Source: an uncultured Muribaculaceae bacterium (GTDB taxonomy: Bacteria; Bacteroidota; Bacteroidia; Bacteroidales; Muribaculaceae). Taken from it: DNA of 49,801 bases. The stretch is taken from assembly GCA_944321905.1 (NCBI GenBank), contig CALUNI010000004.1, forward strand, positions 1 to 49,801, read 5' to 3'. A program made the position numbers and the translations under genes. This document shows, in pieces, positions 2,846 through 38,930 of the stretch. Numbering within the stretch: the stretch's first letter is position 1; each line of letters starts with the position of its first letter. The notes beneath the pieces are model-generated. The model saw only the letters and a list, made by a program, of their open reading frames with translations, did no database searches and had not been told where the DNA came from.

Positions 2846-3694
2846 TCAGCACGCCTTGAAGCTCATGTCAAGCCCTTTCACCGAATGAGTCAACGCTCCC
2901 ACCGAGATAAAATCGACTCCGCATTCGCCATACTCTCGCAGATTGGCAAAAGTTATGCCTCCCGACGATTCGGTCTCGTAGCGGCCTCCTACCATCTCTA
3001 CGGCTTCCTTTGTCATTGCAGGCGTGAAATTGTCAAACATTATACGGTCAACACCGCCTACGCTCAGCACCTGCCGCAATTCGTCAAAATTACGCACCTC
3101 TATTTCAATCTTTAAATCCTTATTGGTGCGTTTCAAGTATTCATGCGCCTTATTGATGGCGTTTTCAATACCACCTGCAAAATCCACATGATTGTCCTTT
3201 AGCAATATCATGTCAAATAATCCTATACGGTGGTTCATTCCGCCGCCAATCTTTACAGCTTCCTTTTCAAGCAGGCGCATTCCCGGTGTCGTTTTCCTCG
3301 TGTCAAGGACTTTGGTTTTCAAGCCCTTCAACTCTTCCATATATTTATGAGTAACAGTTGCAATTCCGCTCATGCGCTGCATTATGTTGAGCATCAACCT
3401 TTCTGTCTGCAACAGCGATTGAACCTTACCCTCGACTTCAAAAGCTATGTCGCCGGGCTTCACGTGTGCACCATCGTTAATAAAGACAGTCATCTTCAAG
3501 TCTTTGTCGAAACGGTTGAATACCATGCGAGCAATTTCCACGCCGGCCAATATGCCTTCTTCCTTGATAAGAAGGTGGGACTTTCCCATTTCTTCTGCCG
3601 GTATGCAACAGAGTGTAGTATGGTCGCCATCACCTATATCCTCGGCAAACGCCAAGTCAAGCAATTCATCAATTAATTCTTCTCTCGTCTTCAT
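2846..3694 (-). CDS. nadC: Nicotinate-nucleotide diphosphorylase (carboxylating), quinolinate phosphoribosyltransferase
   Basis: The 282-residue protein converts quinolinate and PRPP to nicotinate mononucleotide in de novo NAD synthesis. It has the N-terminal NadC domain (EDIGDGDHTT) and the barrel domain with LDTRKTTPGMR, the Lys/His substrate pocket KIGGGMNHRIGL, and LLKDNHV. The C-terminal SSGGI and DFISVGALTHS bind phosphate. Length is typical. nadA and nadB are not adjacent here. It is a single-gene unit with a clear TATCTTTG promoter box. Confidence 0.96.
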   Translation of the reverse strand: MKTREELIDELLDLAFAEDIGDGDHTTLCCIPAEEMGKSHLLIKEEGILAGVEIARMVFNRFDKDLKMTVFINDGAHVKPGDIAFEVEGKVQSLLQTERLMLNIMQRMSGIATVTHKYMEELKGLKTKVLDTRKTTPGMRLLEKEAVKIGGGMNHRIGLFDMILLKDNHVDFAGGIENAINKAHEYLKRTNKDLKIEIEVRNFDELRQVLSVGGVDRIMFDNFTPAMTKEAVEMVGGRYETESSGGITFANLREYGECGVDFISVGALTHSVKGLDMSFKAC

Positions 3695-26606: not shown

Positions 26607-27161
26607 ATGGACGCAGTAAGGATTCAAGACATCAAAAAGACATTGTATGCATACCGAAACGGGATAATAGCCGACCGGTTGCGCAATGCAGGCGACTGCC
26701 ATGCGGTAATATTCGGCCTCAACATTCCACAGTTGATGAACATTGCCAATGAATTAGGCCAAAACTTAAATATAGCAAGGGAGTTATGGAATAATTCGGC
26801 TTCGAGAGAAAGCCGTCTATTGGCTCCTATGCTGTTCCCTTGCGACAACATGGACTTCGCCGAAGCCTGCAAATGGATCGAAAGCGTCGAGAATGTTGAA
26901 ATAACCGATAACTTATGCCACAAACTACTTAAAAAGTTGCCTTTTGCCGAAAATCTATTCTTAAAGTATTCCTCTTCCGGCCATGATTTATTGCGATACG
27001 CCGCATTCAGGCTTGCCATGAACCTACTCAGCATTAATGCCGACTGCAACCGCGCATTGATTCTTAACTCGGCAAAACAAGAACTCGAAGCCAAGTGCCA
27101 ATTGACAAAAAGGCTATGCGATGAAATAATAGAGGAAATCGAGCTCGGCCAACAAGGCTGA
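26607..27161 (+). CDS. DNA alkylation repair (AlkD)-like HEAT-repeat protein
   Basis: The 184-residue, mainly helical protein contains an AlkD-type region: LGQNLNIARELWNNSASRES followed by RLLAPMLFPCDNM. In AlkD proteins this is the characteristic LW...SRE.R.LA pattern. It is shorter than standard AlkD (about 230 residues), so glycosylase activity is uncertain. It ends the operon; the dnaG promoter follows 66 nt later. No terminator hairpin was found between them, so readthrough into dnaG is possible. Confidence 0.7.
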   Translation: MDAVRIQDIKKTLYAYRNGIIADRLRNAGDCHAVIFGLNIPQLMNIANELGQNLNIARELWNNSASRESRLLAPMLFPCDNMDFAEACKWIESVENVEITDNLCHKLLKKLPFAENLFLKYSSSGHDLLRYAAFRLAMNLLSINADCNRALILNSAKQELEAKCQLTKRLCDEIIEEIELGQQG

Positions 27162-27227
27162 AATCGCACCGGGCATAAGGACACAGCTTTTTCATTCTTT
27201 TAAAGGATAGGTAACGAATTTTATTCG

Positions 27228-27235
27228 TAACTTCG
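27228..27235 (+). promoter_or_regulatory. Putative -7 box of dnaG
   Basis: TAACTTCG matches TAnnTTTG at all but one position and ends 22 nt before the dnaG ATG. A small inverted repeat (ACGAA-TTTTA-TTCGT) lies just upstream, overlapping the spacer. Confidence 0.4.
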
Positions 27236-27257
27236 CATTCGCTAATTTTAATGCCGA

Positions 27258-29450
27258 ATGATTGATAAAGCTACAGTTGCCCAAATCCTTGATGCCGCCG
27301 ACATCGTAGATGTGGTTTCCGATTTTGTCAGCCTTAAACGTCGTGGAGCCAACTACGTGGGTCTGTGCCCTTTCCATAATGAGAAAACTCCGTCATTCAG
27401 CGTTTCGCGAGCCAAAGGCATATGCCACTGCTTTAGTTGCGGCAAGGGAGGAAGCCCTGTCAACTTCATTATGGAGCATGAACAGCTTTCTTATTATGAA
27501 GCGCTTAAATACCTCGCAAATAAATATCACATTGAGATACACGAACGGGAACTGACCGATGCAGAAAAACTGGAACAGTCTGACCGGGAAAGCATGCTCA
27601 TAATTAATGAAGCTGCAAACAAGCATTTTGAAGACAACCTGTTCAACTCGGCAGATGGCCGTAACATAGGGCTTTCTTACTTCAACGAACGAGGCTTTTC
27701 CGAACAAATCATACGGCGGTTTCACCTTGGATACTCTCTCGACAAAAGAAACGACCTGTTTGAAACATTGACGTCAAAAGGCTACAACTCTAAATACCTT
27801 TTTGAAACAGGCCTTTGCATAGCCGACGACAAAGGTTCGGGATATGACCGATTCAGAGGACGCGTAATGTTTCCCGTTCTGAATCTCGCAGGAAAAATCA
27901 TTGCATTTGGCGGGCGGACTCTGAAACACGACAAAGCCAAATATGTAAATTCACCCGAGTCGCTCATATACAAAAAAAGTAATGAGCTATATGGATTGTA
28001 TCAGGCAAAGCACGCAATCACCAAGCTCGACAAGTGCTTCCTTGTCGAAGGGTATGCCGATGTCATCTCAATGCATCAGTCGGGCTTTGAAAACACAGTG
28101 GCATCTTCGGGTACATCACTGACCGAAGGACAAATACGGCTCATTCACCGCTTTACCGACAACATAACCGTATTATACGATGGTGATGCCGCAGGCATTA
28201 AAGCGTCGCTACGCAGCATCGACTTGCTGCTCGCCGAGGGACTGAACATAAAAGTGCTGCTGCTACCCGACGGTGACGACCCCGACAGCTTTTCGCGAAA
28301 ACATTCAACTTCCGAGATACAAAACTTTATCGACAGTCACGAAGAAGATTTCATACGTTTCAAGATCCGTATTTTGCTGCAAGGCTGCGAAAACGACCCG
28401 ATTAAACGTTCTGAAGTCATTACCGACGTGATAAAATCGATATCGGTCATCCCATTCCCTATTAACAGGTCGGTTTATACGCAAGAATGCAGCCGTCTGC
28501 TTGACATAGATGAACAGGTCCTAAAAACGGCTGTCGAGAAGAACATACTCGATGCACGCAAAAAGAATTATCAGAAAGCTACAGATGCAAACATAGCCGC
28601 AGCCACGTCCATGCCGCATCCTATAGAGAATGCCGCCGATGTGGCAACCGCCCCGACCGACTCCAACAAACGACAAAACACCGAGACCGCGGCATTTGCC
28701 ACATCTGAATACGATAAACTGATACATCCGCACGAAGAAAACATAATAAGGTATATCCTAAAATATGGAATGAGCGACTTCTGCGATGCCATCGACGAAA
28801 ACCAGCAATCCATACGTCTGACATTGCTCGAATACATAAGAGAGGAACTTGCCATCGACGACATGAAATTCTCAAATCACACTTTCGCTATGATTTATGA
28901 CATGTCGTGCAAATTAATAAGCGAATTCAAAACGTCATTGACGCAATTCTGTAGGGACATAGATACTGAATGTGACTCAATCCGTGAAAATGAAATAAGC
29001 AAGATAAGGCAGGAATGCCAAAGCCTTGATGAAATAGATCAGCGCGAAAACAAGTTAAACAACGAGATAGCGCAATACAAAGAGTCGAAGATTGTAGAAT
29101 TTCGCAATAACTATCTTGAAAAAATCCTGTGTTCCTGCGAGAATGACGACATACGCAAGACTGCGCTCGAATTGGTCAGCGAGAAGCACCACCTAAGCAA
29201 GATACACACCAAATTCTACAAAATAAAAACAGAGTTTGATAGACTCGTGACTCTTATACCCGAGGCAATATACAACTGGAAATCGGCTCTAATACTTTGC
29301 CAAATCAAAGAGATACAAAAAAAACTTGACTCTATAAAAGACGACAAGGCCGAAACCGAATCGTTGCTAAAACGAATACAAGAACTTTTCGCACTAAGGT
29401 CTCAACTCGCAAAGTACCTTGGCGACAGAGTAGTAAACCCAAAGATATAA
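27258..29450 (+). CDS. dnaG: DNA primase DnaG
   Basis: The 730-residue primase synthesises replication primers. The CHC2 zinc domain has ligands Cys37, His40, Cys58 and Cys61. The RNA-polymerase domain includes [20 protein letters not shown], and TOPRIM begins near residue 258 ([10 protein letters not shown], then [20 protein letters not shown]). A long, Ala/Thr/Asn-rich linker (about 430-490) leads to a helical C-terminal domain that should bind the DnaB helicase. The protein is longer than E. coli DnaG (581), mainly in linker and C-terminal part. bioA begins 7 nt after the stop, so replication and biotin genes share a transcript. Confidence 0.97.
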
Positions 29451-31865: not shown

Positions 31866-33259
31866 AATGTAGTTTCATAAAACGTGACGGCAGTGCATCT
31901 TTGGTACTATTCTTCGCAGGTTGGGGAATGGACTTAAATCCGTTTAAAGACATCGACTCAAGTTGCGACATTGCCATTATCTGGGATTACGAAGACTTTG
32001 AACTGCCGGCATCTCAATTTTATGATTATCAAAATATTTACTTGTTTGCATGGTCTTTTGGTATATTTGCGGCATCCGAGTACATACAGAGCCACCCATG
32101 CCTGCCGATAGTATTAAAAACAGCCATCAATGGGACTCAATTCCCCATCGACAACCAACGAGGCATACCGACGAACATATTCAATGCCACATGCGACAAC
32201 TTGTCGGAACACTCGTTGCTAAAGTTCTACCGGCGCATATGCGCTAATTCCGAAGAATACTTGAGCTTCTTGGCACACAAGCCTGCCCGCAGCATTCAAT
32301 CTTTGCACGACGAATTGGCCAACATACGCGACACATCACTTTCTTCAACCCGCCAACCTATGGTATGGGATAATGTAATCGCATCAAGGCGCGATTTGAT
32401 TTTCCCGTTTGAAAACCAATTAAACGGGTGGGAAGGGCTATGTTCCAATATGGAAATTGAAGATAACGGCGCACACATGCCCCACGACTTTGAATCAATC
32501 ATAAATAAAAATATAATAAACAAGCAACTCGTAAAAAAACGCTTCAGCAGCAGCTTCGACTCGGGATATGACGACAATGCTTTCATACAGCGCAAAATCG
32601 CGCAATCGTTATACCGAAAATGGAAAGCCTCTATCGGAATAAATCCCGAAGCCTCTATTCTTGAAATAGGTTGTGGGACAGGATTCCTTACCCGATTATA
32701 CTCGGCCGAGGCTTATCCGTCACGACTTGTTCTTAACGACATATGCAACATACCCACAGTGACGCTGAATCTCAATATCACAAAATATGAGTTTATAGAA
32801 AATGATGCCGAGAAATTATCATTTCCCGAGAATTCATTTGATTATGTCGTATCTTCATCGGCAATACAATGGTTTGAGAATCTGCCACAGTTCTTCAACA
32901 AGCTGCATCAATGGCTAAGGCCCGGAGGGGCTATGGTCATCTCCACTTTCGGCACGGAAAACATGAAAGAAATTAAAGAACACGTCAAAATATCGCTCAA
33001 TTATAAGAGTCTGAATTGGCTTGATAATGAAATAAAGCGTAACTTTGACATCGTTTTAATAAATGAAGAGTCTGAAATCATGCTTTTCGACTCTCCGCTG
33101 CAAGTATTAAAACACATACAATCGACAGGAGTTAACTCGATTGGCTCTAAAAGTGCTTCAAGCGGAACACTAAGAAGGCTTATACGAAACTATCAACCTG
33201 TCAATGGAAAATTCCAACTCACTTATAATCCGATTTATATCATAGCGACCAATAAATGA
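31862..33259 (+). CDS. BioG-BioC fusion: pimeloyl-ACP methyl ester esterase and malonyl-ACP O-methyltransferase
   Basis: The 465-residue protein joins two enzymes that open and close pimelate synthesis. Residues 1 to about 210 are BioG-like, an alpha/beta hydrolase with FFAGWGMDLNPF and nucleophile Ser65 in LFAWSFG. A likely charge-relay His lies near residue 202 in NGAHMPHDF. Residues about 218-465 are BioC, starting VKKRFSSSFDSGYDD, with SAM motif I ILEIGCGTGFLTRLY near 266 and SSSAIQWFENLPQFF. BioC methylates malonyl-ACP; BioG later frees pimeloyl-ACP. BioG-BioC fusions are known from Bacteroidetes. It overlaps both neighbours by 4 nt. Confidence 0.9.
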   Translation: MKCSFIKRDGSASLVLFFAGWGMDLNPFKDIDSSCDIAIIWDYEDFELPASQFYDYQNIYLFAWSFGIFAASEYIQSHPCLPIVLKTAINGTQFPIDNQRGIPTNIFNATCDNLSEHSLLKFYRRICANSEEYLSFLAHKPARSIQSLHDELANIRDTSLSSTRQPMVWDNVIASRRDLIFPFENQLNGWEGLCSNMEIEDNGAHMPHDFESIINKNIINKQLVKKRFSSSFDSGYDDNAFIQRKIAQSLYRKWKASIGINPEASILEIGCGTGFLTRLYSAEAYPSRLVLNDICNIPTVTLNLNITKYEFIENDAEKLSFPENSFDYVVSSSAIQWFENLPQFFNKLHQWLRPGGAMVISTFGTENMKEIKEHVKISLNYKSLNWLDNEIKRNFDIVLINEESEIMLFDSPLQVLKHIQSTGVNSIGSKSASSGTLRRLIRNYQPVNGKFQLTYNPIYIIATNK

Positions 33260-33894
33260 CACCAAAAATTATTTTCATAAGCGGAATAGGAACAAATATA
33301 GGGAAAAGCTATGCTACCGGTTGGTTGGCAAACCAACTTATGGCGCAAGGGAAACGGGTCATAACCCAGAAATTAATCCAAACAGGAAATATCGGATTTT
33401 CTGAAGACATAGCCGTGCACCGCAAGATAATGGGCATGGAACTCGGCGAGTGTGACATGAATCACGCCTCTGCTCCGGTAATATTTTCATATCCGGCTTC
33501 TCCTCACCTTGCCGCGGCAATCGACGGCAAAACCATAGATTTTGATGCAATCAAGAATGCTACAAGCCAACTTGCATCGAGCTACGACACCGTTTTAATA
33601 GAAGGAGCCGGCGGATTGATGGTGCCGCTTACAGAAGATTACCTGACCATTGATTACATCAAAGACAACAAATATCCTGTGGCATTGGTCACAAACGGTG
33701 CGCTCGGCTCCATCAACCACACCATACTATCATTCGAAGCACTGAAATCGCGAGGAATTGATTTATTATATGTCATATATAATTCTTTTTTTGATGAAGA
33801 CCCTATAATCGCCTCCGATAATAAAAAGTTTTTGGAAAAATATTTCTCGCAAAAGTCTCCGAAAACTAAATTCCAAATCTTGCCTAATTTATAA
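33256..33894 (+). CDS. bioD: Dethiobiotin synthetase
   Basis: The 212-residue ATP-dependent carboxylase closes the ureido ring of dethiobiotin. The P-loop is FISGIGTNIGKSYAT (residues 8-20), a variant of GTDTxVGKT. The conserved IEGAGGLMVPL motif is also present. Length is slightly below E. coli BioD (225). It is the last biotin gene here; bioB is absent from the window and must lie elsewhere for a complete pathway. The exonuclease gene starts 3 nt later. Confidence 0.94.
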   Translation: MTPKIIFISGIGTNIGKSYATGWLANQLMAQGKRVITQKLIQTGNIGFSEDIAVHRKIMGMELGECDMNHASAPVIFSYPASPHLAAAIDGKTIDFDAIKNATSQLASSYDTVLIEGAGGLMVPLTEDYLTIDYIKDNKYPVALVTNGALGSINHTILSFEALKSRGIDLLYVIYNSFFDEDPIIASDNKKFLEKYFSQKSPKTKFQILPNL

Positions 33895-33897
33895 GGA

Positions 33898-34524
33898 ATG
33901 GACCCGATGAAAATATCAATCAACAAAGAACAACTTTCAGCCCTTGACCGAGTATTCTTCAACGGGAAAATACACGTCATCGACACATTACCGAAACTGG
34001 ACAAGGCTCTTGACGAGCTGAAGGCTGCCTCGACTCTCGGATTCGATACCGAGACGCGCCCATCCTTCAGAAAAGGGGTCTCGCACAATGTGGCACTTAT
34101 GCAAATATCCACGCTCAACGATTGTTACCTGTTTCGCATCAATAAAATAGGCATGCCCGATTCTTTGCGCTCGTTTCTCGAAGATGCCAAAATCACAAAA
34201 GTAGGACTTTCTTTAAAAGACGACTTCGGCGTTATTCATAAAGGCTATAATGCCAATATGTCGGGTTTCATCGACCTGCAAAAGGTAGTCCCACAATACA
34301 ACATAGCCGATGCAAGCCTGCAAAAGATATTTGCGATTCTTTTCGACAAACGAATATCCAAAGGGCAAAGACTTTCAAACTGGGAAGCCGACACCTTATC
34401 CGAAGCTCAACAAGAATATGCGGCAATAGATGCATGGGCTTGCTTGAAAATATACCATCATCTAATGTCCCATGCCTTCAAACCTGAAGAGTCTAAATAC
34501 ATAGTCAACGAAAATGAAAATTAA
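33898..34524 (+). CDS. 3'-5' exonuclease (RNase D-like, DEDDy)
   Basis: The 208-residue protein carries the DEDDy exonuclease motifs: Exo I GFDTETRPSF, Exo II in VGLSLKDDFGVI and Exo III YAAIDAWACLKIY with the Tyr four residues before the Asp. It lacks the HRDC domain of RNase D and matches short Bacteroidales ribonuclease D-like proteins. The substrate (tRNA, DNA or other) is unknown. Starts at 33898 or 33907 are both possible (MDPMKIS). It lies 3 nt after bioD and overlaps the next gene by 11 nt. Confidence 0.88.
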   Translation: MDPMKISINKEQLSALDRVFFNGKIHVIDTLPKLDKALDELKAASTLGFDTETRPSFRKGVSHNVALMQISTLNDCYLFRINKIGMPDSLRSFLEDAKITKVGLSLKDDFGVIHKGYNANMSGFIDLQKVVPQYNIADASLQKIFAILFDKRISKGQRLSNWEADTLSEAQQEYAAIDAWACLKIYHHLMSHAFKPEESKYIVNENEN

Positions 34525-34831: not shown

Positions 34832-34861
34832 TTGTATTTTTAAACCTATTATATATCTTTG
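34832..34861 (+). promoter_or_regulatory. Promoter of the pheA aromatic operon
   Basis: TTG at 34832-34834, a 19-nt spacer and TATCTTTG at 34854-34861 match both Bacteroidota promoter elements. Transcription should begin near 34865, about 19 nt before the leader-peptide ORF and about 185 nt before pheA. Confidence 0.8.
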
Positions 34862-34883
34862 CATCATCAAAAAACGAATTTCT

Positions 34884-34961
34884 ATGAGCCGATTTTTTGC
34901 ATATAGCTTCTTCTTTTACTTTTATTTTATCAAAAATAAGGGCGAGGTTTTATGTGCATAA
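34884..34961 (+). CDS. Phe/Tyr-rich leader peptide of the pheA attenuator
   Basis: This 25-codon ORF begins MSRFFAYSFFFYFYF: seven Phe and three Tyr in codons 4-15 (34893-34928). It then continues with unremarkable residues to a TAA at 34959-34961. Such concentration of the pathway's end products, between promoter and terminator, is the hallmark of a ribosome-mediated attenuation leader. Codons 20-24 form the 5' arm of the predicted antiterminator, so ribosome position decides folding. It is not expected to make a functional protein. The ATG is preceded by a purine-rich AAAAAACGAA stretch. Confidence 0.85.
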   Translation: MSRFFAYSFFFYFYFIKNKGEVLCA

Positions 34962-35001
34962 TTTTCAAACATTAATGATTAACAAAATATGAAATCCCGC
35001 C
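34941..35001 (+). promoter_or_regulatory. Antiterminator helix of the pheA attenuator
   Basis: GGCGAGGTTTTATGT (34941-34955) can pair with ATATGAAATCCCGCC (34987-35001) over 15 positions: 11 Watson-Crick pairs, three G-U pairs and one A/C mismatch. The 3' arm includes ten bases of the 5' arm of the terminator stem, so the two structures are mutually exclusive. A ribosome stalled on the Phe/Tyr codons leaves the 5' arm free; one that reaches the stop codon covers it. Confidence 0.7.
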
Positions 35002-35029
35002 GTAACAAAAAGCTACGGCGGGATTTTTT
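34992..35029 (+). terminator. Attenuator terminator upstream of pheA
   Basis: A perfect 13-bp stem (AAATCCCGCCGTA / TACGGCGGGATTT) with a 9-nt loop is followed directly by T residues (run of six ending at 35029). It lies 31 nt after the leader stop codon and 19 nt before the pheA start. It therefore acts inside the leader rather than at an operon end. Confidence 0.85.
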
Positions 35030-35048
35030 AATGAGATCACAAAATACA

Positions 35049-35891
35049 ATGAAACGTGTAACTATTCAAGGAGAACCGGGATGCTTTCATGAAGCCGCCG
35101 CAAGGCAATATTTCAATGGGGAAGAAATAGAAATCATCCCATGCGAAACATTCGCTTCAATGTTTGACACACTTGGCAACGATGCTTCGCTAATTGGCAC
35201 TCTTGCCATAGAAAATACAATAGCCGGAAGCTTGTTACAAAATCACGAATTACTTCGCAAAAGCGACTTATTGATAGTTGGCGAATACAAAATGCACATT
35301 TCTCATGTCCTCGCGTCAATGCCCGGACAATCCATAAGCGACTTAACCGAGGTTCATTCACACCCCATGGCTCTCATGCAATGCGCCCAATTCCTGCACC
35401 GTCACCCAAACTTGAAAATAGTAGAAAAAAGCGACACGGCAGGAAGCGCACAAGAGATAGCCCAAAAAAATATCATGGGCATAGGTGCGATATGCGGAGA
35501 ATATGCGGCCAACCTATATGGATTGGAGATTTTGGCCAAGGACATACAAACCAACAAGCGCAATTCCACCCGTTTCTTGATTATCGCCAACCCTCTCGAA
35601 GCTCCGTATCTGGTCAAGAATGGAAAAATCAACAAAGCCTCGCTTGCTTTCACGCTGCCTCACACGCAAGGAAGCCTGTCGAAAATCCTAACAATCTTTT
35701 CATTCTACGACATCAATCTTTCCAAAATACAATCATTGCCTATTATAGGCAGGGAATGGGAATACAGGTTTTACATAAATCTCACATTTAACGACTATGC
35801 ACGATACAGGCAATCGCTCGATGCTGTGAAACCACTTATAAACGAATTTAAGATACTTGGTGAATATAACGAATTTACATATGAAGACTGA
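35049..35891 (+). CDS. pheA: Prephenate dehydratase
   Basis: The 280-residue protein converts prephenate to phenylpyruvate. It has the PDT catalytic domain (about 3-180: IQGEPGCFHEAAARQYF, PIENTIAGSLLQNHELL, then NSTRFLII). A C-terminal ACT domain (about 195-280: SLAFTLPHTQGSLSKILTIF) should mediate Phe feedback. The chorismate-mutase domain is not on this protein but on the DAHP synthase downstream. I place the start at ATG 35049. The frame is open back to 34989, but those codons run through the terminator hairpin. It is first structural gene of the attenuated operon. Confidence 0.95.
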   Translation: MKRVTIQGEPGCFHEAAARQYFNGEEIEIIPCETFASMFDTLGNDASLIGTLAIENTIAGSLLQNHELLRKSDLLIVGEYKMHISHVLASMPGQSISDLTEVHSHPMALMQCAQFLHRHPNLKIVEKSDTAGSAQEIAQKNIMGIGAICGEYAANLYGLEILAKDIQTNKRNSTRFLIIANPLEAPYLVKNGKINKASLAFTLPHTQGSLSKILTIFSFYDINLSKIQSLPIIGREWEYRFYINLTFNDYARYRQSLDAVKPLINEFKILGEYNEFTYED

Positions 35892-37050
35892 CACCATAAA
35901 ACCCGCCGACAGGATATCTCAAGTAAAAGAGTACTATTTCTCTATGAAACTTAGAGAAATTGCACAATTAAATGCTTCGGGAGCCGACATCATTTCTCTC
36001 GGCGTGGGCGGCCCGGACCGTCCGCCACATGCCGATGTCATAGAAACATTATGCCGCGAAGCTCGACAAAACGACACTCACGGATACCAGCCATACGTCG
36101 GCATTCCCGAACTGAGGTCTGCATTTGCCGACTGGTATGCCAATTATTATGGCGTGACGCTTGACCCTTCAACCGAAATACAACCGCTGATCGGATCAAA
36201 AGAAGGCATACTGCATACTACTCTCGCTTTTGTGAATCCCGGCGACGGGGTGCTTGTGCCCAATCCTGGATATCCCACATACACATCGGTCAGCCAAATT
36301 GCAGATGCAAAAATTTATAAATACGACTTGACCGAGCAAAATAACTGGGAACCCGATTTTGAAGCCATCGAACGACTGCCACTTGACGGCATAAAGCTAA
36401 TGTGGGTCAATTATCCTAACATGCCTACCGGGCATCGAGCTTCGGCAGAGCTGTTTAAGAAGCTCGTTGACTTCGGCCTCAAGCATGACATAGTTATCGT
36501 AAACGACAATCCTTACAGCTTTATCTTAAACGACAATCCCTTGAGCATTCTAAGTATCGATGGAGCCAAAGAGATTGCAATAGAGATGAATTCTTTAAGC
36601 AAGTCGCACAATATGGCGGGATGGAGAATAGCCATGATTGCCTCAAATCCACAATTCATACAATGGATATTGAGGGTTAAATCAAATATCGACTCCGGGC
36701 AGTTCAAGCCTATGATGCTTGCCGCTGCCAAGGCGTTGAAATGCGACAAGACGTGGTATGACGAGATAAATGCCGTTTATGGCCGTCGCCGTAGCATAGC
36801 CGAGCAGATTATGGCTGCATTAGGATGCACGTTCGACCCGAGCCAAGCAGGCCTGTTCTTATGGGGGAAAATTCCCGATGGCATCGATAATGCAGAATCA
36901 TTGTCAGAAAAGATATTACATGACGCACGTGTATTCATCACCCCTGGATTCATTTTTGGATCTAACGGCAAACGCTACTTACGCATTTCATTATGCGCCA
37001 CCGAAGAACGAATGCAAGAAGCACTCGAAAGAATAAAAAATATGAAATAA
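35881..37050 (+). CDS. Class I/II PLP aminotransferase, probable aromatic amino acid aminotransferase
   Basis: The 389-residue fold-type I aminotransferase resembles the LL-DAP/aspartate aminotransferase group: ISLGVGGPDRPPH near the N-terminus, PNPGYPTYTSV, and MWVNYPNMPTGHRA. The PLP Lys241 lies in MNSLSKSHNMAGWR and the C-terminal substrate Arg in RYLRISLC. Its place between pheA and the DAHP synthase/chorismate mutase argues for transamination of phenylpyruvate and 4-hydroxyphenylpyruvate to Phe and Tyr. Substrate is inferred from context. The start ATG 35881 overlaps the pheA stop by 11 nt; an in-frame ATG at 35857 is less likely. Confidence 0.9.
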   Translation: MKTDTIKPADRISQVKEYYFSMKLREIAQLNASGADIISLGVGGPDRPPHADVIETLCREARQNDTHGYQPYVGIPELRSAFADWYANYYGVTLDPSTEIQPLIGSKEGILHTTLAFVNPGDGVLVPNPGYPTYTSVSQIADAKIYKYDLTEQNNWEPDFEAIERLPLDGIKLMWVNYPNMPTGHRASAELFKKLVDFGLKHDIVIVNDNPYSFILNDNPLSILSIDGAKEIAIEMNSLSKSHNMAGWRIAMIASNPQFIQWILRVKSNIDSGQFKPMMLAAAKALKCDKTWYDEINAVYGRRRSIAEQIMAALGCTFDPSQAGLFLWGKIPDGIDNAESLSEKILHDARVFITPGFIFGSNGKRYLRISLCATEERMQEALERIKNMK

Positions 37051-37058
37051 ATAAGAAT

Positions 37059-38135
37059 ATGATTATGACAGACTTAAAACCTATTGTGACAATCGACCAA
37101 GTTGGTCGTCCCATTGTTATCGCAGGCCCTTGCAGTGCCGAAAGCGAAGAACAAATCCTAAACACAGCACATACCCTTGCCGAATATGGCATCAAAATAT
37201 TCCGTGCCGGAATATGGAAACCGCGCACAAAACCGGGCGGATTTGAAGGCGTAGGCGAAAAAGGCCTGAACTGGCTCGTGAAGGCAAAACAAGAAACCGG
37301 AATGCTCGTTTGCACCGAAGTCGCAAACAGGGCACATGTCGAAGCGGCGCTAACGGCGGGAATCGACATTCTATGGATTGGCGCACGCACATCGGCCAAC
37401 CCGTTTGCCGTACAAGAAATTGCCGACTGCATTGCAGGCCATGACATCCCTGTAATGATAAAGAACCCTGTCAACCCCGACCTTGAACTATGGATTGGAG
37501 CCATAGAACGCATTTACAATGCAGGCATACATCGCATCGCAGCCATCCACCGCGGCTTCACAGTATATGGCAAGCACCTTTACAGGAACATGCCGCAATG
37601 GCATATACCAATCGAATTGCGCAGGAGGCTGCCCGATTTGCAAATAATTTGCGATCCTTCCCACATGGGCGGCAAGCGCGAACTCATCGCCCCATTGTCT
37701 CAGCAAGCCCTCGACATGGGATTTGACGGCCTCATGATTGAATCTCATTGCGACCCCGATTGCGCTCTCAGCGACAAAAGCCAACAAATAACGCCCGAAG
37801 TGCTTAACTTCATACTTAACACCCTCGTTTTGAGAGAAACCACCCACACCACCGAGAGTCTGTCGCTCTTAAGGCAACAAATCGACCAGATTGACAACGA
37901 CTTGATTGAGATTCTTTCCAAGCGCATGAGGGTCTCCCGTGAAATCGGTCAATATAAAAAGGAACACCGTATGCAAATCGTTCATACCAATCGTTACGAC
38001 GATATCTTAAAATCTCGTATGAAATTTGCCGAAGAACTTGGCATGAGTGGCAGCTTCATGCGCTTGGTCGTAGAAGCCATACACGAAGAATCGGTGCGCC
38101 AGCAAATAGAAGTATTAAACAATCGAATGAAATAA
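37059..38135 (+). CDS. Bifunctional 3-deoxy-7-phosphoheptulonate synthase / chorismate mutase
   Basis: The 358-residue protein combines a type I-beta DAHP synthase (about 1-260; GRPIVIAGPCSAESEEQ, FRAGIWKPRTKPGGFEG, CDPSHMGGKRELI) with a C-terminal AroQ chorismate mutase. The mutase covers about 268-355 (LSLLRQQIDQIDNDLIEILS and EIGQYKKEHRMQIV). It thus carries both the first step of the shikimate pathway and the chorismate branch point towards Phe/Tyr. The mutase domain often also gives allosteric control by prephenate in such fusions. Start ATG 37059 (or 37065) lies 8 nt after the aminotransferase; the open frame upstream to 36993 overlaps that gene. Confidence 0.93.
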   Translation: MIMTDLKPIVTIDQVGRPIVIAGPCSAESEEQILNTAHTLAEYGIKIFRAGIWKPRTKPGGFEGVGEKGLNWLVKAKQETGMLVCTEVANRAHVEAALTAGIDILWIGARTSANPFAVQEIADCIAGHDIPVMIKNPVNPDLELWIGAIERIYNAGIHRIAAIHRGFTVYGKHLYRNMPQWHIPIELRRRLPDLQIICDPSHMGGKRELIAPLSQQALDMGFDGLMIESHCDPDCALSDKSQQITPEVLNFILNTLVLRETTHTTESLSLLRQQIDQIDNDLIEILSKRMRVSREIGQYKKEHRMQIVHTNRYDDILKSRMKFAEELGMSGSFMRLVVEAIHEESVRQQIEVLNNRMK

Positions 38136-38156: not shown

Positions 38157-38930
38157 ATGAAAATTCTTATCCTTGGAGCCGGGAAAATGGGGTCATTCTT
38201 CTGCGACGTGCTAAGCTTCAAGCATGAAGTGGCTGTATATGACAAAAATCTCGACCGATTAAGATTCACTTTTCACGCCTTGCGCCTCTCCTCGCTCGAC
38301 GAAATCAAAGAGTTCCGTCCCGACTTGCTCATTAACGCAGTCACTGTCAAATACACAATCGACGCTTTCAACGAAGTGCTGCCTTTGTTGCCCGACGGTT
38401 GCATCATATCCGACATTGCATCGGTGAAAAATGGCTTGCAGGAATTCTATGCGGCTTGCAAGCATCCATTCGTAAGCACACACCCGATGTTTGGCCCAAC
38501 ATTTGCGTCACTGAGCAATCTGTCGAGTGAGAATGCAATAATTATTGCCGAGGGAGACCACCTTGGAAAGATATTTTTCAAAGACTTATACAATGAGCTG
38601 CACTTAAACATTTTTGAATACACGTTTAAGCAGCACGACGAAACCATTGCTTTTTCTTTGTCGATTCCTTTTGCCAGCACTCTCGTCTTTGCAGGCGTAA
38701 TGAAACACCAAGAAGCTCCCGGCACCACATTCAAGCGGCACATGGCTATTGCACGAGGGCTTATGTCGGAAGATGATTACCTGCTGCAGGAAATATTATT
38801 TAATCCTCACACTACGGGTCAATTACAAAAAATCCAACAACAACTCGCAAAATTGCAGCAGATAGTAGAAACTAAAGACAGCCACGCTATGAAGATTTTT
38901 CTCGATGAAGTTAGGGAAAACATAAAGTAA
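38157..38930 (+). CDS. tyrA: Prephenate dehydrogenase
   Basis: The 257-residue protein has a Rossmann domain at the start (ILILGAGKMGSFFCDVLS) and NAVTVKYTIDAFNEVLP, followed by the catalytic STHPMFGPTFASLS region. A helical dimerisation domain follows. It converts prephenate to 4-hydroxyphenylpyruvate for tyrosine synthesis. There is no ACT domain. It is the last gene of the operon, 21 nt after the DAHP synthase/chorismate mutase and followed by a strong terminator. Confidence 0.93.
   Translation: MKILILGAGKMGSFFCDVLSFKHEVAVYDKNLDRLRFTFHALRLSSLDEIKEFRPDLLINAVTVKYTIDAFNEVLPLLPDGCIISDIASVKNGLQEFYAACKHPFVSTHPMFGPTFASLSNLSSENAIIIAEGDHLGKIFFKDLYNELHLNIFEYTFKQHDETIAFSLSIPFASTLVFAGVMKHQEAPGTTFKRHMAIARGLMSEDDYLLQEILFNPHTTGQLQKIQQQLAKLQQIVETKDSHAMKIFLDEVRENIK

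What the first reader, a model, noticed from the sequence alone, without database searches (positions are those of the whole stretch)
34832..35048. Aromatic-rich leader peptide between promoter and pheA
A complete -33/-7 promoter is followed by a 25-codon ORF in which 10 of 12 consecutive codons (4-15) are Phe or Tyr. An intrinsic terminator then follows, and next comes an operon making Phe and Tyr (pheA, aminotransferase, DAHP synthase/chorismate mutase, tyrA). Seen directly: the codons and the hairpin. Known: ribosome-mediated attenuation of phe/trp/his operons in other phyla. Inferred: the same mechanism here, sensing both Phe and Tyr charging. Leader-peptide attenuation is little studied experimentally in Bacteroidota, which initiate translation with weak Shine-Dalgarno sites.
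Basis: partly seen in the sequence, partly recalled or inferred. Interest (0 to 1): 0.75.

Follow-up and report, generated by a model that had tools for sequence, protein, structure and literature searches.

The report
Aromatic leader-peptide attenuator before pheA
In front of a bacterial operon predicted to make phenylalanine and tyrosine sits a tiny reading frame in which 10 of 12 consecutive codons are for those two amino acids, followed by two mutually exclusive RNA pairings that would likely let a ribosome stalled by amino-acid shortage switch the operon on, and such aromatic leaders recur in most of the related pheA regions examined in the class Bacteroidia.

Summary
The window (Muribaculaceae by its nearest named relatives) has a 25-codon ORF (34884-34961), 10 of codons 4-15 being Phe/Tyr, between a Bacteroidota-type promoter and a strong terminator (34991-35029) just before pheA (35049). 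Relatives support it: aromatic leader in 38 of 44 same-family, 30 of 36 same-order and 20 of 24 same-class pheA upstream regions, against 1 of 42 outside the class (shuffles: at most 0.21 per set). Antiterminator and terminator co-vary: own pairs -13.2 kcal/mol, permuted -9.2, 0 of 10,000 as good. In a ribosome-position folding model the antiterminator is available on aromatic codons and lost at the stop in 73 of 80 leaders. Rfam has no match. The mechanism is classic, and a 2021 transcriptome paper already noted a 5' element before pheA in Flavobacteriaceae. Apparently new: class-wide spread, the covarying switch, Trp-bearing versions, and paired attenuators in series in a few lineages. No expression data were available.

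The parts
34832..34861 (+). promoter: TTG (34832-34834), 19-nt spacer, TATCTTTG (34854-34861)
   Evidence: read; TAnnTTTG within 70 nt upstream of leader ATG in 35 of 38 family, 24 of 34 order, 11 of 21 class-set leaders vs 1.6, 1.5, 1.2 expected
34884..34961 (+). leader peptide ORF, 25 codons + TAA: MSRFFAYSFFFYFYFIKNKGEVLCA
   Evidence: similar leaders in relatives
34893..34928 (+). aromatic control codons 4-15 (10 of 12 Phe/Tyr)
   Evidence: F<->Y exchange dominates change at codons 9-14 in relatives
34898..34910 (+). segment 1 (protector 5' strand), pairs with 34944-34948 and 34951-34958
   Evidence: minimum-energy fold; own vs permuted partners across loci 0 of 10,000
34941..34951 (+). 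segment 2 (antiterminator): 34941-34944 and 34946-34951 pair with 34998-35001 and 34991-34996, one A-C mismatch between
   Evidence: duplex -12.8 kcal/mol for this locus, which includes one further pair; covariation across 80 leaders
34991..35004 (+). segment 3: terminator 5' arm
35014..35029 (+). segment 4: terminator 3' arm (35014-35027) and end of T-run (35029)
35049..35891 (+). pheA, prephenate dehydratase (PF00800); start by homology (an in-frame ATG at 34989 lies just upstream of the terminator)
35857..37050 (+). class I/II aminotransferase (PF00155)
36993..38135 (+). DAHP synthase + chorismate mutase type II (PF00793 + PF01817)
38157..38930 (+). tyrA-like prephenate dehydrogenase (PF02153)
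   Evidence: order pheA-AT-DAHPS/CM-tyrA found in 71 of 80 named relatives, the other 9 lacking one or more in the stretch held

Best explanation
This is a transcription attenuator, read by the ribosome, that likely senses shortage of charged Phe and Tyr tRNAs and is predicted to switch on the downstream Phe/Tyr operon. Shown: the leader ORF with its aromatic run, the terminator, and an antiterminator and protector whose pairings exclude each other and co-vary among relatives. Inferred: when Phe- and Tyr-tRNA are charged, the ribosome would run to the stop codon and cover segment 2, so 3:4 forms and transcription stops near 35029. When either is short, the ribosome would stall on codons 4-15, cover segment 1 but leave segment 2 free, 2:3 forms before segment 4 is made, and polymerase reads into pheA. 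Before a ribosome loads, 1:2 would hold polymerase or favour termination; this last step is the least supported.
For: Aromatic leader (ATG ORF, at least 7 of 12 F/Y, within 400 nt) in 38 of 44 family, 30 of 36 order, 20 of 24 class regions and 1 of 42 outside the class; shuffles 0.16, 0.21, 0.21, 0.04; reverse complements 0, 1, 0, 0. A named set (species partly the same): 66 of the 74 of 80 loci with at least 250 nt upstream. Segment 2 x segment 3 duplex: own -13.19, permuted -9.19, 0 of 10,000 as good, also within family, order and class sets; 71 of 80 in the best 5% of shuffles. Segment 1 x segment 2: own -12.28 vs -8.45, 0 of 10,000. Ribosome-position model: medians 0.76/0.79/0.71 paired on aromatic codons vs 0.15/0.17/0.13 at stop; 73 of 80 differ by more than 0.3; with shuffled linkers 42 of 237. 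The antiterminator is lost a median of 2 codons after the last aromatic codon, n = 79. At codons 9-14 of the 33 of 38 family leaders that could be anchored, 51 of 73 departures from the commonest residue are F<->Y, and the third base varies at each of these codons (tallied from the table). Same genome: hisG is preceded by a His-rich short ORF and hairpin, leuA by one with Leu and Ile codons.
Against: No transcript, term-seq or ribosome-profiling data were available. With no ribosome, the equilibrium fold up to segment 3 still favours the antiterminator (set medians 0.67-0.72; 0.68 for this locus), so termination without translation is predicted only if 1:2 forms first and persists. The protector pairing is in the best 5% of shuffles in only 43 of 80 leaders (19 of 31, 14 of 31, 10 of 18). 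Five of 43 family regions with enough upstream DNA lack a leader (L027, L035, L038, L040, L044), as do 6 of 36 order and 4 of 24 class regions at the same threshold and 8 of 74 in the named set. The strict terminator detector missed 13 of 93 leaders. The switch point lies within 3 codons of the run's end in 60 of 79 leaders, not all, and its rank correlation with the run's end (0.56) is only a little above that with peptide length (0.47). The model uses an assumed ribosome edge (13 nt past the A-site start) and is thermodynamic. Relatedness inflates permutation tests, though the order set has one genome per family.
Confidence: 0.9

Rival explanations
1. The hairpin is an ordinary terminator (for example of the upstream genes) and the aromatic ORF is a chance reading of a T-rich 5' UTR; there is no regulation.
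For: The region is T-rich; genome-wide there are other six-codon TWY runs, and the pattern read backwards hits 14 times against 19. L035 keeps a terminator-like hairpin before pheA with no leader.
Against: An ATG-started aromatic ORF in 88 of 104 family, order and class regions vs about 0.6 expected from shuffles; covarying antiterminator; first base T nearly invariant at codons 9-14 with F/Y exchange at the second; the promoter motif lies upstream of the ORF.
Confidence: 0.03
2. The element regulates translation or RNA stability of pheA (or acts through a nascent-peptide arrest or a ligand-binding RNA) rather than transcription termination by stalled decoding.
For: Residues outside the aromatic run are also conserved (Arg at codon 3 in 29 of 33 anchored leaders, codon CGA in 27).
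Against: The terminator carries a T-run and pheA starts downstream of it in the leaders where the detector found one (80 of 93); no Rfam family at gathering score in the window or in 20 loci searched; F and Y replace each other freely, unlike what an arrest peptide should allow; codon 6 ends in A in 32 of 33 anchored leaders, as the RNA pairing of segment 1 would ask.
Confidence: 0.05
3. The leader senses general translation slow-down or Phe alone, Tyr codons being neutral fillers.
For: Phe outnumbers Tyr in order and class-set leaders (193 F/123 Y; 103 F/77 Y); the E. coli pheA leader is Phe-only (recalled).
Against: Family leaders have 190 Y and 184 F, and the operon carries genes for both amino acids.
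Confidence: 0.1

Closest known systems
Enterobacterial pheA leader (pheL; Rfam RF01859 Phe_leader)
   Same: Short aromatic leader peptide, alternative hairpins and terminator before a pheA gene
   Different: Not a member by Rfam (17.6 bits against a gathering score of 55); Phe and Tyr codons here, before a joint operon with DAHP synthase, chorismate mutase and tyrA; E. coli splits these between pheA attenuation and TyrR (recalled)
Structured 5' element upstream of pheA in Flavobacterium psychrophilum and other Flavobacteriaceae (PMC9723704)
   Same: Same phylum, same gene, leader-peptide attenuation suspected for amino-acid operons there, no Rfam hit
   Different: Passages read give no anatomy of the pheA element; supplements could not be read; conservation is stated there for other genera of the family, while the spread here is class-wide
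Long 5' UTRs with small ORFs 'reminiscent of leader peptides' in Bacteroides thetaiotaomicron (PMC7366714)
   Same: Same order, same suspected mechanism
   Different: The passage read names BT_4401, not pheA, and leaves validation to the future
Attenuation surveys (PMC2965389; Lopatovskaya et al. 2010, not held)
   Same: Leader-peptide attenuators predicted by comparative genomics
   Different: PMC2965389 passages place leader-peptide systems in Proteobacteria, Actinobacteria and, newly, Firmicutes; Lopatovskaya 2010 could not be read and may already list Bacteroidota cases

Membership tests
Ribosome-mediated leader-peptide attenuators | Short ORF rich in codons of the amino acid made by the operon | tested here: met
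Ribosome-mediated leader-peptide attenuators | Intrinsic terminator between leader ORF and first structural gene | tested here: met
   (this locus; 80 of 93 leaders by a strict detector)
Ribosome-mediated leader-peptide attenuators | Antiterminator mutually exclusive with the terminator | tested here: met
   0 of 10,000 permutations
Ribosome-mediated leader-peptide attenuators | Control codons placed so that a stalled ribosome frees segment 2 while one at the stop covers it | tested here: met
   model only: this locus 0.67 vs 0.10; 73 of 80 leaders, control
Ribosome-mediated leader-peptide attenuators | Protector/pause hairpin 1:2 giving termination without translation | tested here: inconclusive
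   pairing co-varies but is in the best 5% of shuffles in only 43 of 80, and the no-ribosome equilibrium model mostly still forms the antiterminator
Ribosome-mediated leader-peptide attenuators | Expression rises when the cognate aminoacyl-tRNA is scarce | not testable with these tools
   no expression data
Rfam RF01859 Phe_leader | Score at or above the family's gathering score | tested here: not met
   17.6 vs 55 bits; no gathering hit in the 20 loci searched, relatives included
T-box riboswitch | T-box covariance model match upstream of the operon | tested here: not met
   no Rfam gathering match in the whole window; no T-box among the weak matches

The most novel reading that the evidence does not exclude
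Bacteroidia as a class, though poor in Shine-Dalgarno sites (recalled), run aromatic biosynthesis through an ancestral family of ribosome-read attenuators that score Phe, Tyr and in many lineages Trp codons together, and several lineages have doubled it into two complete attenuators in series, so that polymerase must pass two independent charging checks before reaching pheA.
Probability: 0.6. Interest if true: 0.6.

Novelty: new member of a known kind. Interest (0 to 1): 0.45.

Why it matters
It gives Bacteroidota, whose ribosomes initiate largely without Shine-Dalgarno pairing (recalled), a well-delimited case in which transcription should depend on coupled translation of a 25-codon ORF, with the switch parts marked to the base. 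That makes transcription-translation coupling and leader initiation in this class directly testable with a small reporter. It would also explain how these bacteria set their own Phe/Tyr synthesis, and no Rfam family matched any of the loci searched.

Tried and rejected
Rfam at low threshold gave 19 matches, all below gathering score and on both strands. First pass on family loci used the wrong orientation for minus-strand hits, corrected. Idea that Trp codons in leaders follow the presence of trpE: leaders containing W were 0 of 38 family, 11 of 34 order, 10 of 21 class set; the trpE N-domain was found in 59 of 80 genomes searched; 16 of the 21 without it are of the window's family, so the pattern is confounded with ancestry and I make no claim. 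W was counted anywhere in the peptide, and I did not test whether it is enriched over background. Anchored codon table: 33 of 38 family leaders; the anchor pattern itself required F, Y, H or N at codon 4, one of F, Y, S, N, D at 5, A/S/T at 6 and Tyr at 7, so those residues are not evidence. Rows dropped: of 40 order genomes with PF00800, G000 and G013 were repeats and G064 and G104 were left out because the match starts inside the domain; of 77 non-class genomes with a match, 42 were examined; 15 of 59 family genomes had no pheA match and were not examined. L066 was left out because the detector had paired leader 1 with terminator 2; it counts as a failure in the 73 of 80. Paper searches: listings seen. 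One search found no paper; one search listed four, not opened; one search asked for either of two terms and none of its three listed papers held 'tandem attenuator', so it says only that none holds both. PMC4833913 was read in passages and those give no Bacteroidota attenuator.

Full report
What is there. The window carries a 25-codon ORF at 34884-34961 (MSRFFAYSFFFYFYFIKNKGEVLCA) in which codons 4-15 hold 10 Phe/Tyr. Upstream lies TTG-19 nt-TATCTTTG (34832-34861), the Bacteroidota promoter form (consensus recalled). Downstream lies a hairpin with 14 outer pairs (34991-35027) and a T-run to 35029, then pheA at 35049 and a run of genes: prephenate dehydratase, aminotransferase, DAHP synthase/chorismate mutase, tyrA-like dehydrogenase. 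In the window a six-codon aromatic run is expected 0.01 times; in the whole genome such runs are not rare (19 matches, 14 for the reversed pattern), so the case rests on position and conservation.

Where it comes from. The gene order pheA-AT-DAHPS/CM-tyrA is found in 71 of 80 named relatives; the other 9 lack one or more genes in the stretch held.

The switch. These are the three mutually exclusive pairings of a classic attenuator.

Conservation. I took the upstream regions of pheA in the same family (44 of 59 genomes had a match), order (40 of 99; 36 new regions examined) and phylum (102 of 118; 24 class regions and 42 of 77 outside it examined). An ATG ORF with at least 7 of 12 F/Y within 400 nt is present in 38 of 44, 30 of 36, 20 of 24 and 1 of 42 respectively, against shuffle expectations of 0.16, 0.21, 0.21 and 0.04, and 0, 1, 0, 0 in reverse complements. 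One family region (L022) was cut at 133 nt by the contig end; the other five family misses (L027, L035, L038, L040, L044) show no such leader in 400 nt, and L035 keeps a terminator-like hairpin without it. The one positive outside the class (L159) is the only one of the 41 whose pheA start was printed (L161 was not) that begins like the Bacteroidia type with FHD. The other outside-class pheA genes are mostly of another type, so this control is one of lineage rather than of base composition. A named set, overlapping in species, gives 66 of the 74 loci with at least 250 nt upstream.

Codon evidence. In the 33 of 38 family leaders that could be anchored from the start codon, the first base of codons 9-14 is nearly always T (pairwise difference at most 0.12), while the second swaps mostly between T and A and the third varies (0.17-0.54); 51 of 73 departures from the commonest residue at codons 9-14 are F<->Y (tallied from the table). 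That is what a constraint on 'an aromatic codon here' looks like. Codon 6 ends in A in 32 of 33, in line with the segment-1 pairing; the residues at codons 6 and 7 were part of the anchor and are not evidence.

Covariation. For the 80 of 93 leaders with a terminator found by a strict detector, the duplex of each leader's own segment 2 region with its own terminator arm averages -13.19 kcal/mol; with partners permuted the mean is -9.19 (sd 0.26) and none of 10,000 permutations reach the observed value; the same holds within family (31), order (31) and class (18) sets. The order set contains terminator arms as different as AAAGCCTCGG, AAAGGTCCCA and GAAGCCTCACC, each matched by its own antiterminator. 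The protector pairing shows the same permutation result (own -12.28, permuted -8.45, 0 of 10,000), but against shuffles it is weaker: only 43 of 80 are in the best 5%.

Geometry. I folded the RNA free of the ribosome, up to the end of segment 3, for each A-site codon (assumed edge 13 nt past the start of the A-site codon). The terminator arm is held by upstream RNA with a median 0.76/0.79/0.71 on aromatic codons and 0.15/0.17/0.13 at the stop, and 73 of 80 leaders differ by more than 0.3; with shuffled linkers 42 of 237 do, against 73 of 79 real ones in that run. The antiterminator is lost a median of 2 codons (quartiles 1 and 3) after the last aromatic codon, within 3 codons in 60 of 79; relative to the stop codon the spread is wider (quartiles -9 and -2). 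The rank correlation of the switch point with the run's end is 0.56, with peptide length 0.47. For this locus the values are 0.67 on aromatic codons, 0.10 at the stop and 0.68 with no ribosome. The last number is against the simplest 'off without translation' picture; it is an equilibrium value and 1:2 forms earlier in time, but I cannot decide that here.

What is known. PMC9723704 (passages read) reports 'strong clues' for leader-peptide attenuation upstream of amino-acid operons in F. psychrophilum and a 5' element before pheA present in other genera of Flavobacteriaceae, without Rfam hits. PMC7366714 (passages) mentions small ORFs in long 5' UTRs of B. thetaiotaomicron. PMC2965389 (passages) knows leader-peptide systems from Proteobacteria, Actinobacteria and Firmicutes. 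Lopatovskaya et al. 2010 is not held and may contain Bacteroidota cases. Rfam has no gathering match in the window or 20 related loci. So the mechanism is known and this is a new member; the class-wide spread and the base-level anatomy I did not find in the listings and passages seen.

Two features found on the way go further. Outside the window's family, leaders often contain Trp, in or beside the aromatic run (11 of 34 order, 10 of 21 class-set leaders, 0 of 38 family). And in the order and class sets 12 of 55 leaders have a second F/Y-rich ORF upstream of pheA by a loose criterion (at least 6 of 12, up to 700-800 nt); family regions showed none, but only 500 nt were looked at. Nine of the twelve were modelled as tandem attenuators: in eight a terminator was found for both ORFs (L064 lacks a detected second one); in six (L048, L059, L061, L066, L099, L138) both modules switch by more than 0.3 in the model; in three (L048, L066, L099, from three different families) both modules also have an antiterminator duplex in the best 5% of 200 shuffles. 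L055 and L144 are weaker. Two complete leader-peptide attenuators in series would be unusual; I recall no described case, and searches showed none in their listings.

Noticed in passing
L249 (G000 contig 1, upstream of hisG at 3165): Same genome: hisG is preceded by a short ORF MKLNKLHIHLHHHHCTTTGGAATSVCRHFRWI and a GC-rich hairpin with T-run, a likely His attenuator.
   Followed up: partly
L251 (G000 contig 19, upstream of leuA at 26978-28450, minus strand): leuA is preceded by a short ORF MYNCHSISSIISLLLSFSGSGS and a hairpin with T-run, a likely Leu/Ile attenuator.
   Followed up: partly
L048, L066, L099 (less complete: L055, L059, L061, L064, L138, L144): Two aromatic leader-terminator modules in series before pheA.
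   Followed up: partly
leaders of order and class sets, e.g. L045, L057, L133, L141: Trp codons inside or beside the Phe/Tyr run, suggesting sensing of all three aromatic amino acids.
   Followed up: partly
family leaders, codon 3: Codon 3 is CGA (Arg) in 27 of 33 anchored leaders; the strict codon choice suggests an RNA or decoding-speed constraint not explained here.
   Followed up: no
G000, and 16 of 25 other genomes of its family searched: No match to the trpE N-terminal domain family PF04715, so many of this family may not make Trp.
   Followed up: partly
G000 contig 21, 12437-12454 (L079): Another 18-codon aromatic-rich ATG ORF (MFFYYFFLKYWFLSCFLP); its context was not examined.
   Followed up: no
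window 33256-33894: AAA_26-domain protein (PF13500) upstream of the exonuclease-domain gene 33898-34524.
   Followed up: no
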